Below are positions 45,305-58,474 of a DNA stretch of 64,000 bases, in pieces. The notes beneath the pieces were generated by a model that was not told the origin of the DNA, searched no databases, and worked only from the letters and a program-made list of their open reading frames with translations. This stretch comes from Acidimicrobiales bacterium (GTDB lineage: Bacteria; Actinomycetota; Acidimicrobiia; Acidimicrobiales; DATDAH01). Position numbers and translations under genes: made by a program. The number at the start of each line of letters is the position of its first letter. Position 1 is the stretch's first letter. The stretch is taken from NCBI GenBank assembly GCA_016794585.1, contig JAEUJM010000013.1:186001-250000 (forward strand). Direction: 5' to 3'.

Positions 45305-45365
45305 GCTTGCTCTCTCCTGTGGCTCGTGCCCGGCAGGTTGAGAGGGCGGATCGGTGTCGATCCCG

Positions 45366-45458
45366 AACTTCCCTGCGCCGGCATGACCCGGATCAGGTTC
45401 GACGGTCGGGGGCTGGCCAGCCCACCCTCTCAGCCCGGTCCACCGGACTCCCGTGTTC
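45366..45458 (-). promoter_or_regulatory. TPP riboswitch (THI element)
   Basis: On the minus strand the leader contains the GGGCTGAGAGGG box and, downstream, CCTGATCCGGGTCATGCCGG followed by CGCAGGGAAG: the two conserved halves of the TPP aptamer in correct order and spacing. A GATC-GACACC-GATC hairpin follows before the ribosome-binding site and could act in the expression platform. It should repress the thiamine uptake operon when TPP is high. Confidence 0.93.
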
Positions 45459-45505
45459 TGACCACGACGCTACCAGCGGCGCGCCCATCGCACCGCGGCG
45501 CTGGA

Positions 45506-54118: not shown

Positions 54119-54331
54119 TCAGTCCGGGTACGGGTCGGTGTCGTCGGGCTCCTGGAGGAGGTTGATGGCCTTCTCCACCGCCCGGCGGGCGCGGGTGAGG
54201 CGCTTCTCGTCCACGGGCAGCTCATGGCCGCCGGCATCGATGGACTCGCGCAGGCGGATGATGGCCAGGTCGGCCAGCTCCTCGGCGATGCCCTCGAGGC
54301 GGCCACGGATCTCGTCGAATTCACCGGCCAT
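54119..54331 (-). CDS. Small helical protein, unknown
   Basis: A 70-residue acidic protein with two probable helices (EIRGRLEGIAEELADLAI, then RARRAVEKAINLLQ), a coiled-coil-like layout. Its ATG overlaps the glcF 3' end by 11 bases, so it is the last gene of the glycolate oxidase operon. No family recognised; possibly an accessory subunit or unrelated. Confidence 0.65.
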   Translation of the reverse strand: MAGEFDEIRGRLEGIAEELADLAIIRLRESIDAGGHELPVDEKRLTRARRAVEKAINLLQEPDDTDPYPD

Positions 54332-55568
54332 CGGAGCCTTCTTTCGGTCGTGCGTCGGGGAGAGCGTTCGGGAGGAGCGCATCGAGGATCTCCATCGGGT
54401 GGCGGGCATCCACGCCGGCGGCGGCGAGGTGCAGGGCGCACCCGGGGTTGGCGCTGGCCACCACAGGGGCCCCGGCGCGAGTGATGGCCCCCAGCTTGCG
54501 GTCCCGGATGGCCGACGACAACTCCGGCTGCGTCGCCGAGTAGGCCCCACCGGCTCCGCAGCACAGGCCCTCGTCGTCCAGCTCCACCAGCGTGACGTAG
54601 GGCGCCAGCACGTCCCGCACGGCCTGGTGCTGCTTCTGGACGTGGCGCAGGTGGCACGGGTCCTGCACCGCCACCCGGTCGGCCGCAGCCGAGGGACCGG
54701 GCGCCGGCAGGGTGTCGAGTCGACCGGCCAGCCACTCGTGGACGTCGAGCACCCGGGCGCTGAAGGCCGCCGCCTCGGGCGTCCCGAGCAGGTGGCCGTA
54801 GTCCTTCAGCTGCGCCCCGCAGCCCGCCGAGTTCACGAGGATCGGAGCGTCACCGGGGACGGCCGCCATCACCTGCTCGGCCTGCCCGCGGGCGACGTCG
54901 GTCAGACCGGCGTGGGTGGCCAGGGCGCCGCAACAGCCCGCCGCTCCCCCCGTGGGCCGGACGCCGGCACCGGCCGCGCCGAGCACCCGCATCGTGGCGG
55001 CGTGCACCGGGCGCTGCCAGGCGTCCATCACGCACCCGGTGAACAGCCAGACGTCGTCGCCCGTGGCCTCGAGAGGCTCGCGCCTGACGGTCAGCCGGGG
55101 CAGCACCGGCAGCCGCCCGGAAAGCCCCGACCCGGCACCCGGGTCAGCACCCGGCGCCGGCGCCACGGGAAGGAGGCGGAGGCGCTGGGCGACCGCCAGC
55201 AGCGACGACCCCGCCAGCAGGAGGCTGTGGTGGCCGAGCAGTCGGTACCCGAGGCGCCGCCACCAGGGCTGGTAGGGCGTGTCGGCGGCCAGCGCCGCCC
55301 GGGTGCCCTCCATGAGCGCCCCGAACGGCACCGCGGAGGGACAGACCGGCTCGCAGCCCCGGCACTGCACGCAGGTGTCCATGGCCGCGGTGAAGTCCGC
55401 GTCGACCGCCGCCCCCTGCCACTGCACCAGGCGCATCGCGGCGATGCGCCCTCGCGGCGACGCCGCCTCGTCGCCGGTGACCCGGAAGGTCGGGCAGTGC
55501 GGCAGGCACAGCCCGCAGGCGACGCACGTGGCCAGGGCATCGTCGTCGAGACCGAGCGGCCCGCTCAC
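54321..55568 (-). CDS. glcF: Glycolate oxidase iron-sulfur subunit GlcF
   Basis: Electron-transfer subunit of the glycolate dehydrogenase complex. The 415-residue protein has two [4Fe-4S] motifs: CVACGLCLPHCP and CVQCRGCEPVCP. It then carries two CCG domains with GGAAGCCGAL, NSAGCGAQL, EGLCCGAGGAY and SANPGC, typical of GlcF and heterodisulfide-reductase-like proteins. GTG 55568 was chosen as the first start consistent with the family; the longer open frame crosses the hairpin-rich spacer. It passes electrons from GlcD/GlcE, probably to quinone. Confidence 0.92.
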   Translation of the reverse strand: MSGPLGLDDDALATCVACGLCLPHCPTFRVTGDEAASPRGRIAAMRLVQWQGAAVDADFTAAMDTCVQCRGCEPVCPSAVPFGALMEGTRAALAADTPYQPWWRRLGYRLLGHHSLLLAGSSLLAVAQRLRLLPVAPAPGADPGAGSGLSGRLPVLPRLTVRREPLEATGDDVWLFTGCVMDAWQRPVHAATMRVLGAAGAGVRPTGGAAGCCGALATHAGLTDVARGQAEQVMAAVPGDAPILVNSAGCGAQLKDYGHLLGTPEAAAFSARVLDVHEWLAGRLDTLPAPGPSAAADRVAVQDPCHLRHVQKQHQAVRDVLAPYVTLVELDDEGLCCGAGGAYSATQPELSSAIRDRKLGAITRAGAPVVASANPGCALHLAAAGVDARHPMEILDALLPNALPDARPKEGSDGR

Positions 55569-55662
55569 GCCGGACCACCCCCGCGGCACCCGACGGGGGC
55601 TGTCTGGTGCTCGCTCCCGCATCCGATCGGGCTGCGAGCGCGGTCCCGAGGGAGCGTCCCGG

Positions 55663-55781
55663 TTCTCGGAAGCCTCAGGCCGCTCACGGCGGTTCCAAAG
55701 CTCCCAGAACCAGAGCGGCGCGCCGGCCTGTACGTTCTCGGAAGCCTGGATCCGCCGGGACCGGCTTCTCGCTTCCCAGAA
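55663..55781. repeat. Two tandem palindromic units, TTCTCGGAAGC arms
   Basis: Unit 1: TTCTCGGAAGC (55663-55673) with the near-complement GCTCCCAGAA (55700-55709). Unit 2: TTCTCGGAAGC (55735-55745) with GCTTCCCAGAA (55771-55781). Left arms are identical; loop sequences differ. Unit starts are 72 bases apart. Confidence 0.65.
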
Positions 55782-55840
55782 TCGTCGACCCGGCTTCGAA
55801 CCACCACGGTCGATGCCCGTCGGCCCTCGCCCCGCCGAAG

Positions 55841-55881
55841 TCGAGGCAATGGCCCCCGGATTCCGGGGGGCATTGCCTCGA
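55841..55881. repeat. Long near-perfect hairpin between glcE and glcF
   Basis: CGAGGCAATGG... faces ...CATTGCCTCG: arms of about 20 bases with one mismatch and almost no loop (centre GGATTCC). No U-tract, so not a classic terminator; it could attenuate or stabilise the transcript, or be a transposed palindrome. Confidence 0.75.
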
Positions 55882-55929
55882 GAACGGGCACGGTCGTCGG
55901 TGCGACCACGGAACGAGACCCGGCGGGGC

Positions 55930-56844
55930 TCACGCCATCGCCTGCAGGGGTTCACGGCCGGGGTTGAGACGGCCGGTCGGGTCGAGCTCGGCCTTCACCC
56001 GACGGTTCAGCGCCACCACGGCATCGGGCAGCGCCGCCGGCGCCGGTGGGTCCTCGCGGTGGACCAGCCCGGTACCGATCTCGGCCAGGAACGGACCGGC
56101 GACCGTGCGCAGCGCCGCCGCGCCCATCGAGTGACGGTGGGGCGGAAACACCGGCGGCCCGTCCACCGGCGAGAAGCCCAGACCGCCCAGCACCGCCGCC
56201 TCCGCCTCGACGTCCACCTCGTGGCCCTGGAGCCACACCCAGGTGGTGCTGCCGTCCCACAGCACCGCCGCCGGCCGGTACAAGGCGGAACGGACCGACC
56301 ACGGGTCGGCCGCCCCGGCGAACCACCGCGAGCACGGCGGCGCAGGTCGGGTCCGCAGGACGACCTCGCCCAGCAGGCCCAGCGTGCCCAACGACCCGAC
56401 CAGCACCCGGCACAGGTCGTAGCCGCTGACGTTCTTGACCGTGGGGCCGCCGGCCTTCACCAGGCGGCCTTCGGCGGACACGTACCGGGCCTCGAGCAGG
56501 GCGTCACGCACCGGGCCCCACCGCAGCTGGTCCAGCCCGCTGCGTCCCACGGCGAGCACGCCGCCGACGGTCGCGCCGGCGCCATCCGACCCCGACGGCA
56601 GCGCCGTGATCTGCCCGGCCTCCGCGAGCACCCCGTGCAGGGCGGCCACGGGGGTGCCCGCGCCCACCCGCACCGTCATCTCTGCGGGCTCGTACTCGAC
56701 GACTCCCACCGGGGCGGCGACGAGGCGCACGTCGGCGTCCGGCTCACCACCCACGTCCCACGCGGTGCGACCCCCGACGACGGCGACGGGCCCGTCAGCG
56801 CCCACCTCGGACGCGAATGCCTCGAGCGCCGACCGGCCCGTCAT
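55930..56844 (-). CDS. glcE: Glycolate oxidase FAD-binding subunit GlcE
   Basis: A 304-residue FAD-binding type-4 protein, shorter than GlcD. Conserved pieces include MTVRVGAGTPVAALHGVLAE, ITALPSGSDGAGATVGGVLAVG and KAGGPTVKNVSGYDLCRVLVGSLGTLG, the FAD contact region. GlcD, E and F together oxidise glycolate (or lactate-like 2-hydroxyacids) to glyoxylate. ATG 56844 is the family-like start; further upstream the frame is Arg-rich and unlike a real N-terminus. It follows glcD by 142 bases. Confidence 0.9.
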   Translation of the reverse strand: MTGRSALEAFASEVGADGPVAVVGGRTAWDVGGEPDADVRLVAAPVGVVEYEPAEMTVRVGAGTPVAALHGVLAEAGQITALPSGSDGAGATVGGVLAVGRSGLDQLRWGPVRDALLEARYVSAEGRLVKAGGPTVKNVSGYDLCRVLVGSLGTLGLLGEVVLRTRPAPPCSRWFAGAADPWSVRSALYRPAAVLWDGSTTWVWLQGHEVDVEAEAAVLGGLGFSPVDGPPVFPPHRHSMGAAALRTVAGPFLAEIGTGLVHREDPPAPAALPDAVVALNRRVKAELDPTGRLNPGREPLQAMA

Positions 56845-56986
56845 CGCCGACCCCGGTCGAGGGCCCGCCCGCTCACCCCGGCACGAACGACGCCGGCGCC
56901 GGGTCCCGGCCACCGCGCAGCGACGTGCCAGGACGAGTCGGCGCCGCCCCCAGCCGCGAAGGTCCCAACGGCACGGTCCGCCGCCC

Positions 56987-58474
56987 TCACACCCACACCC
57001 CATCGGGGACGTGCTGGAGGTCGGCGCAGCGCGATCCCGCGGGCAGCACCTTGGCCGGATTGGCCAGGCCGTCGGGGTCGAAGGCCGCCCGTAGGCGGGC
57101 CTGGGCGTCGAGGTCGTCGGGGCCGAAGAGCAGGCCCATGAAGTCCCGCTTCTCGAGGCCGATGCCGTGCTCGCCGGACAGGACCCCGCCGGCCGCCAGC
57201 GATGCCGCGACGATCTCGGCGCCGGCGGCGTGGACCCGGTCCAGGGTGCCCGGCACCCGGGCGTCGAAGACCAGGAGCGGGTGCAGGTTCCCGTCGCCGG
57301 CGTGGAAGACGTTCATCACCAGCAGGTCGTGGCGGTCGGCGATGGCGTAGATCTGGGTGAGCACCTCCACCAGCTTCGACCGGGGCACCACCGTGTCGTG
57401 CAGGTAGTAGTTGGGAAGGATGCGGGCCACCGCCCCGAAGGCGGTCTTGCGGCCCTTCCACAGGAGCGCCCGCTCGGCATCGTCGGCCGCGACCCGCACG
57501 GTGCGGGCCCCGTGGGAGCGCACGACCTCGGCCACCAGGGCCGCGTCGGCGGCCACCCCACCCGGCAGGCCGTCCACCTCCACCAGCAGCACCGCGGCGG
57601 CGTCGGTCGGGAAGCCGGCGTGCACGAAGTCCTCGACGGCCCGGGTGATGCGGGCGTCCATCATCTCCAGCGCCGCGGGCACCACCCCGGCCGCGATCAC
57701 CGCACTGACCGCCGCGGCGGCGTCCTCGACGCGGGCGAAGTCCACCAACATGGTCTGCACCGCAGGGGGGTTGGGCGTGAGTCGGACGGCGACCGCGGTG
57801 GCGATGCCGAACGTCCCCTCCGAGCCCACGAACGCCCCCCGCAGGTCGAGGCCGGGCACGTCACCGAGGCCGTCCTGGGGGCCCAGCACGGTGACGGTCG
57901 CATCGGGCAGCACCACCTCGAGCGCGAGCACGTGGGCGCTGGTGACCCCGTAGGCGAGGCAGTGGGGACCGCCGGCGTTGTTGGCCACGTTGCCCCCGAT
58001 CGAGCAGGCCTGCTGGCTCGACGGGTCGGGGGCGAAGTGCACGCCGTGCGCCAGCAACGAGCGTGTCAGGTCGAGGTTGATCACCCCCGGCTCGACCCAC
58101 GCCACCCGCTGGTCCACGTCGACGGACCGGATCGCGTTCATGCGGGTGGTGGAGATCACCACCGCGCCGTCGAGGGGCACCGCGCCCCCGGCCAACCCCG
58201 TGCCCGAGCCGCGCGCCACGAAGGGTCGGCCGTGGCGGCGCGCCACCCGCACACATGCGGCCACGCCGGCGGTGTCGGTCGGGAAGCACACCGCCGCGGC
58301 GACGCCGACGTCGATGGTCGAGGCGTCCCGGGCGTACAGCGCCCGATCGAGGGCGTGGGCGTGCACGGCGTCGGCGCCGATCGCCCGGCGCAGGTCGTCG
58401 ACCAGGCCGGCGTCGGCGTCACCGTCGACGGGGGTCCGGGCGCGCACCGGCCCAGTGTGCCCGACCGCGACCAT
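56987..58474 (-). CDS. glcD: Glycolate oxidase FAD-linked subunit GlcD
   Basis: Catalytic subunit. The 495-residue protein has an FAD-binding domain (CFPTDTAGVAACVRVARRHG, ARGSGTGLAGGAVPLDGAVV, CSIGGNVANNAGGPHCLAYG) and an FAD-linked oxidase C domain (NVFHAGDGNLHPLLVFD, GGVLSGEHGIGLEKRDFM). Substrate is probably glycolate, though D-lactate is possible. ATG 58474 is assumed; GTG 58447 would remove nine residues. First gene of glcD-glcE-glcF, diverging from a Cys-rich gene. Confidence 0.93.
   Translation of the reverse strand: MVAVGHTGPVRARTPVDGDADAGLVDDLRRAIGADAVHAHALDRALYARDASTIDVGVAAAVCFPTDTAGVAACVRVARRHGRPFVARGSGTGLAGGAVPLDGAVVISTTRMNAIRSVDVDQRVAWVEPGVINLDLTRSLLAHGVHFAPDPSSQQACSIGGNVANNAGGPHCLAYGVTSAHVLALEVVLPDATVTVLGPQDGLGDVPGLDLRGAFVGSEGTFGIATAVAVRLTPNPPAVQTMLVDFARVEDAAAAVSAVIAAGVVPAALEMMDARITRAVEDFVHAGFPTDAAAVLLVEVDGLPGGVAADAALVAEVVRSHGARTVRVAADDAERALLWKGRKTAFGAVARILPNYYLHDTVVPRSKLVEVLTQIYAIADRHDLLVMNVFHAGDGNLHPLLVFDARVPGTLDRVHAAGAEIVAASLAAGGVLSGEHGIGLEKRDFMGLLFGPDDLDAQARLRAAFDPDGLANPAKVLPAGSRCADLQHVPDGVWV

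What the first reader, a model, noticed from the sequence alone, without database searches (positions are those of the whole stretch)
55663..55881. Palindromic repeats and a long hairpin between glcE and glcF
Two units with identical TTCTCGGAAGC left arms and near-complementary right arms, then a ~20-bp hairpin with almost no loop, occupy 361 bases without a gene inside an operon. Could be a mobile palindromic unit, an RNA-processing site or a regulator of subunit ratio.
Basis: seen in the sequence. Interest (0 to 1): 0.5.

Follow-up and report, generated by a model that had tools for sequence, protein, structure and literature searches.

The report
Tagged palindromic repeats between glcE and glcF
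The gap between two metabolic genes holds copies of two families of short DNA palindromes that are scattered, mostly just after genes, through this bacterium's genome, and relatives carry palindromes of the same size and end signature but different sequence, which suggests a little-known class of dispersing repeats.

Summary
The 361-bp glcF-glcE spacer holds two 49-bp imperfect palindromes (FAM1, 72 bp apart) and one 49-bp near-perfect palindrome (FAM2). Both are repeat families of this genome: about 33 FAM1 places and 42 FAM2 copies. Comparing all intergenic palindromes in about 1.03 Mb of the genome shows a class: several unrelated sequence families share a span of 49 or 50 bp and a GTTC/GAAC tetranucleotide at the ends, in either orientation. 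They lie downstream of genes, none of 40 tagged units in a divergent gap. Paired units keep spacings on a ~11-bp comb. Related Acidimicrobiia, and one genome of another class, carry palindromes of the same size and tag with other interiors. One family is present or absent at the same site in close relatives. No RAYT-type transposase was found. Best reading: a REP-like, tetranucleotide-tagged class of dispersing palindromes, enzyme unknown, that probably entered the glc operon secondarily (58 relatives have glcE-glcF gaps of at most 157 bp). Effects on glc expression are untested.

The parts
55662..55710 (.). FAM1 unit 1, 49-bp imperfect palindrome GTTCTCGGAAGC...GCTCCCAGAAC, tags GTTC and GAAC
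55734..55782 (.). FAM1 unit 2, 49 bp, tag GTTC at the left, AATC at the right; starts 72 bp after unit 1
55837..55885 (.). FAM2 unit, 49-bp near-perfect palindrome (core 55841-55881), left end GAAG, right tag GAAC
55569..55929 (.). 361-bp spacer between the glcF and glcE reading frames
54321..55568 (-). glcF-like gene (Fer4 and CCG domains)
55930..57003 (-). glcE-like gene (FAD_binding_4); the true start is probably nearer 56850
56987..58474 (-). glcD-like gene (FAD_binding_4, FAD-oxidase_C)

Best explanation
The spacer holds three copies of a class of short interspersed palindromic repeats found across Acidimicrobiia. A unit is 49 or 50 bp: a near-palindrome with stems of up to about 22 bp and a 3-5-nt centre, bounded at each end by GTTC or its reverse complement GAAC. 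Shown: the units are multi-copy; they fall into several unrelated sequence families that share size and tags; they sit just downstream of genes; doublets are spaced on a ~11-bp comb; interiors differ between lineages; one family is present or absent at an orthologous site. Inferred: they spread as non-autonomous REP-like elements, copied at DNA level by an enzyme that reads the tags and a hairpin or two inverted half-sites; the helical phasing of doublets suggests protein bound to one face of double-stranded DNA; they are tolerated 3' of genes because they do little harm there. In the glc operon a FAM1 doublet and a FAM2 singlet probably entered after the operon formed. Their hairpins would be in the polycistronic message, where they could protect the upstream glcDE part or dampen read-through into glcF; that last step is untested.
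For: FAM1: 33 places at E <= 0.0055 in 17 loci, 12 loci with 2 or more units. FAM2: 42 copies, control 0; arms covary, 95 cells with changes on both sides against a shuffle mean of 31. Of 85 intergenic palindromes in 1.03 Mb, 23 carry GTTC/GAAC at both ends at span 49 (14) or 50 (9), 17 more carry one; of 136 tetranucleotide classes only this one is so concentrated, 28 of 30 at 49-50. FAM2a/c, found without the tags: 24 of 33 tagged left, 24 of 33 right, background 0.8%. 40 tagged units: 20 convergent, 20 codirectional, 0 divergent; 56 of 177 background gaps are divergent. Replicated in G002: 4 of 4 intergenic tagged pairs of length 38-61 at 48-50. Doublet spacing: 8 of 20,000 uniform draws as regular, period left free. 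Presence/absence at the glcF 3' site. glcE-glcF gap -52 to 157 bp in 58 relatives, 361 here.
Against: No enzyme found: PF01797 in 0 of 10 carrier or sister genomes; no transposase among 20 of the 22 genes beside 11 FAM1 loci. No clean empty site for the window itself, as no genome of the same family or genus was among those searched. Absence in relatives could be deletion. Tags are missing from FAM2b (9 of 9 copies) and incomplete at two of the three window units. Most tagged units come from stretches chosen round FAM1 and FAM2; in the unbiased own sample plus window only 3 of 6 tagged pairs lie at 48-50. Tag orientation does not behave as a simple target-site duplication (direct 11, inverted 12 of 23).
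Confidence: 0.66

Rival explanations
1. They are functional RNA elements at gene ends: U-less transcription terminators or 3'-end protecting stems, recruited and spread by selection. In glcE-glcF they would set the ratio of the two messages.
For: Position just 3' of genes, none of 40 in divergent gaps. Very stable folds. Hairpin clusters without poly-U are proposed as terminators (PMC8355165, abstract and section list only).
Against: No U-tract: T is 15% of the 10 bases after 20 codirectional units, at most 3 of 10; 0 terminator-like sites in the spacer. RNA function does not predict a fixed 49/50-bp span, tetranucleotide tags, lineage-specific families or ~11-bp phasing of doublets. G.U against A.C 21:14, inconclusive. 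Many strong hairpins in the same genome lack the signature.
Confidence: 0.22
2. They are binding sites of a DNA architectural protein or of a site-specific recombinase; repetition reflects a regulon-like set of sites rather than mobility.
For: Palindromy, fixed span and helical phasing of doublets.
Against: Several unrelated interiors within one genome, strong copy-number differences between close relatives (16, 11, 0, 3 and 12 hits), strong avoidance of divergent promoter regions.
Confidence: 0.1
3. The spacer is incidental: chance palindromes in high-GC DNA.
For: High-GC DNA yields weak palindromes (52 in a first-order Markov control against 174 seen at 15 of 20 arm matches).
Against: No control palindrome reached 17 of 20, 40 real ones did; repetition with zero control matches.
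Confidence: 0.01

Closest known systems
REP elements and BIMEs (GTAG- and CGTC-tagged palindromic repeats, Di Nocera et al. 2013, PMC3733652; I read part 1 of 8 and searched its text)
   Same: Short interspersed palindromes with a tetranucleotide tag, several families per genome, mostly downstream of genes between unidirectional or convergent genes, units often close to each other.
   Different: Here the tag is GTTC/GAAC, at both ends and in either orientation; the span is 49-50 bp (REPs 20-40 bp in that paper); stems are longer than the 6-13 bp given for GTAG families; no RAYT gene was found; doublets are helically phased. That paper's text has no hit for Actinobacteria, GTTC or GAAC.
MITEs (RUP, NEMIS, ERIC; as described in the background of PMC3733652)
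   Same: Non-coding, inverted repeats, inserted next to genes, can fold in the message.
   Different: MITEs are given as 70-300 bp with 15-30 bp terminal inverted repeats; these are 49 bp with almost no interior and no consistent target-site duplication.
Hairpin-cluster intrinsic terminators (PMC8355165; abstract and section list)
   Same: Hairpins, often two, close behind stop codons, poly-U not always needed according to that paper's headings.
   Different: Here: repeated sequence families, fixed span, end tags and helical phasing.

Membership tests
REP (GTAG/CGTC superfamilies) | multi-copy short palindromes in extragenic space | tested here: met
   33 FAM1 places, 42 FAM2 copies; position
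REP (GTAG/CGTC superfamilies) | GTAG or CGTC tetranucleotide at one end | tested here: not met
   GTTC/GAAC at both ends; of 136 tetranucleotide classes it alone peaks so strongly at span 49-50
REP (GTAG/CGTC superfamilies) | length 20-40 bp | tested here: not met
   span 49 or 50 bp
REP (GTAG/CGTC superfamilies) | RAYT (Y1_Tnp) gene in the genome (GTAG type) | tested here: not met
   PF01797 0 of 1 and 0 of 10 genomes; control rings in 5 of 14
MITE | terminal inverted repeats | tested here: met
   whole unit is an inverted repeat
MITE | target-site duplication | tested here: inconclusive
   flanking AA/TT direct in 11 and inverted in 12 of 23 units with both tags
MITE | ends shared with an autonomous element | not tested
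   no full IS with these ends was searched for systematically; 20 of 22 genes beside 11 FAM1 loci are ordinary or unknown
Intrinsic terminator (canonical) | GC-rich hairpin followed by a U-tract | tested here: not met
   at most 3 T in 10 after 20 units; 0 sites in the spacer
Described RNA family | match to an Rfam model | tested here: not met
   no gathering match in the spacer; only sub-threshold matches to unrelated families, E 0.09-0.85
IS91-type rolling-circle element (recalled: GAAC/GTTC-like targets) | Y2 transposase PF04986 in carrier genomes | tested here: inconclusive
   0 of 5 genomes, but 0 of 14 control genomes rang either

The most novel reading that the evidence does not exclude
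A third superfamily of tetranucleotide-tagged palindromic repeats, GTTC/GAAC-tagged, in Actinomycetota, spread by an enzyme other than the RAYTs that reads the tetranucleotide in either orientation plus a ~49-bp hairpin or two inverted half-sites, and that copies or places units at helically phased distances.
Probability: 0.4. Interest if true: 0.75.

Novelty: new variant of a known kind. Interest (0 to 1): 0.58.

Why it matters
The REP survey I could read describes two tags, mainly in Proteobacteria and a few other phyla, with a known candidate transposase for one of them. A third tag with longer stems, tags at both ends and helical phasing, in a deep actinobacterial lineage, would give an independent case of such repeats and a concrete question: which enzyme moves them. 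It would also warn annotators not to read every strong 3' hairpin in these genomes as a terminator, and it offers natural tests of how an inserted hairpin changes expression inside an operon.

Tried and rejected
RAYT as driver: PF01797 absent. IS91-like driver, suggested by recalled GAAC/GTTC targets: PF04986 absent but the control is silent, so nothing follows. Known RNA family: none. Canonical terminator: no U-tract. RNA-level selection through G.U asymmetry: inconclusive. FAM2 outside this genome: 0 stretches in genome contigs (near relatives may be left out there) and 0 of 98 other genomes of the order. One search found 8 other genomes at E <= 0.001; by eye I accepted G288, G002, G101 and G211 and did not count G029, G119, G266 and G355. 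In one search, 75 of 396 genomes matched, most with 1-2 hits, near the reversed control. Seven had 3 or more forward hits: own 8, G489 10 (control 1), G002 6 (control 3), G005 5, G033 4, G552 3, G721 3. I accept own, G489, G002 and G033; the other three look like unrelated sequence by eye, not tested. L183 15536 is probably coding and not a member. Spacings left out: C21 135, C25 191, C48 301 and the second, identical 94 at C31. The copy L122 6306 (one tag) was left out because it overlaps a predicted gene. One search printed nothing of use.

Full report
What is there. The glcF and glcE reading frames (minus strand, after glcD; Pfam domains fit) are separated by 361 bp, 55569-55929. The spacer holds two tandem imperfect palindromes (FAM1, 55662-55710 and 55734-55782) and one near-perfect palindrome (FAM2, 55837-55885). 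Folded as RNA it is far more stable than shuffles, z -5.4.

The units are repeats. A FAM1 half-pattern hits 13 times in the 5.49-Mb genome and 0 times reversed. A covariance model from 18 units finds 33 places at E <= 0.0055 in 17 loci, 12 of them with two or more units; 150 of 24,788 first-look candidates were scored, and the model's own members match by construction. The 'long hairpin' belongs to a family of 42 copies, control 0. FAM2 outer arms come in matched variants (GAGGCAAT, GACGCAAT, GGAGGAAAT and others); six of the 42, counted by eye, have mixed inner arms. On the ungapped alignment of all 42, 92% of cells pair and 95 carry a change on both sides, against 31 in shuffles and at most 44 in slid controls. 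Relatedness of the copies is not removed by the shuffles.

A class with a signature. I fetched 47 stretches round the sites and 20 stretches of 20 kb chosen without regard to them, called genes with a home-made codon-usage caller, and listed all intergenic palindromes in 1.03 Mb: 85. Of these, 23 carry GTTC or GAAC at both ends at span 49 (14) or 50 (9), and 17 more carry one; other spans are almost empty. They include FAM1, FAM2a/c and at least three further families (CTGGCTCCCGATTCG..., TTCTGCCAGCACC..., TTCCGGGTAC...). Tag orientation is mixed: GAAC-GTTC 7, GAAC-GAAC 6, GTTC-GTTC 5, GTTC-GAAC 5. Against all 136 tetranucleotide classes GTTC/GAAC is the only one so concentrated, 28 of 30 at span 49-50. 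FAM2 was found without using the tags, yet 24 of 33 FAM2a/c copies are tagged on the left, 24 on the right and 16 on both; the background is 0.8% per position; FAM2b (9 copies) has none. In the unbiased own sample plus window alone the signal is small, 3 of 6.

Replication in other genomes. In 400 kb of complete genome G002 (same order, another family) all 4 intergenic tagged pairs of length 38-61 lie at 48-50. The FAM1 model hits 9 of 397 genomes of the order at E <= 0.001, own included; I accept four others by eye. An exact tagged pattern (GTTCTSG-N35-CSAGAAC) finds families in G033 (4 copies), G002 (6, control 3) and, outside the class, G489 (10, control 1); the thirteen copies that I checked pair at 15-18, 13-16 and 17-19 of 24 positions respectively. 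In sponge-associated Acidimicrobiaceae (record titles do not all say so; source of the name is partly recalled) a further family has 16, 11, 0, 3 and 12 pattern hits in five genomes. Interiors differ in each lineage.

Turnover. Behind glcF, L163 and L213 carry a doublet of that family. L183, 94.2% identical to L213 over the 1.2 kb up to the glcF stop, and L214 lack it, while the downstream flank aligns; L212 has a different palindrome there. At another site two genomes have a doublet (L271, L279) and one a singlet (L289) with similar flanks by eye. For the window itself, 58 of 80 Acidimicrobiia loci with glcE found upstream of glcF have gaps of -52 to 157 bp against 361 here. This fits later insertion; no genome of the same family or genus was among those searched.

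Spacing. Twelve FAM1 doublets have start-to-start distances of 70, 71, 72, 72, 72, 80, 82, 82, 83, 84, 93 and 94, with unrelated spacers. Regularity at a period near 11 bp is reached by 8 of 20,000 uniform draws, with the period left free. Other genomes fall on the same comb: 60 at six sponge-clade sites (59 in one genome's copy), 61 in L151, 71 and 72 in G002, 93 in G211. Such phasing points to double-stranded DNA and bound protein rather than to RNA; that is inference.

Position. Of 40 tagged units 20 lie between convergent genes, 20 between codirectional and none between divergent genes; background gaps of 60 bp or more are 15, 106 and 56 of 177. One untagged FAM2b copy lies in a divergent gap and one half-tagged copy overlaps a predicted gene. 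There is no U-tract and no terminator-like site in the spacer.

Mechanism. I favour dispersal as non-autonomous REP-like elements. Shown: repetition, signature, presence/absence at one orthologous site, phasing, position. Inferred: movement, DNA-level copying, tag recognition. Not found: the enzyme. In the glc operon the hairpins would be in the message and could shift the glcDE to glcF ratio, as RNA structures are reported to do in E. coli operons (PMC5927463, abstract and section list); nothing here tests that.

Known and new. The nearest kind is the tagged REP (PMC3733652, part 1 of 8 and a term search). The tag, length and RAYT tests are not met, so I do not file these as REPs; they work like REPs in dispersion and position. 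Searches for a report of such repeats in Actinobacteria gave none in the open-licence library held; subscription papers are not covered.

Noticed in passing
45352-45464 (minus strand): TPP riboswitch (Rfam RF00059, 59.2 bits).
   Followed up: no
L121 2114 and 7964, L116 514 and 1997, L109 3073, L127 7402 and 12549, L134 3942: A further palindrome family (CTGGCTCCCGATTCG / CTGGCACCGGATTTCGG) of span 50 whose tags are nearly always in direct orientation (GAAC-GAAC or GTTC-GTTC).
   Followed up: partly
L079 6185, L086 5305, L088 6650, L103 2220, L118 6207, L120 6085: Six FAM2 copies with matched outer arms but mixed inner arms (CTGTCGG against CCGGGGG type), as if half-sites had been exchanged.
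   Followed up: no
L224, L232-L239 (genome G288): In G288 a 47-bp TTCT...AGAA palindrome is found alone and also inside a longer repeat of roughly 250-300 bp at several sites.
   Followed up: partly
L018 (own genome C30:13286-13337): A FAM2 copy with an 18-nt loop instead of about 3, so unit length is not absolutely fixed.
   Followed up: no
L151 13952 and 14013: Two nearly identical neighbouring units 61 bp apart that differ in the orientation of the right-hand tag (GTTC against GAAC).
   Followed up: no
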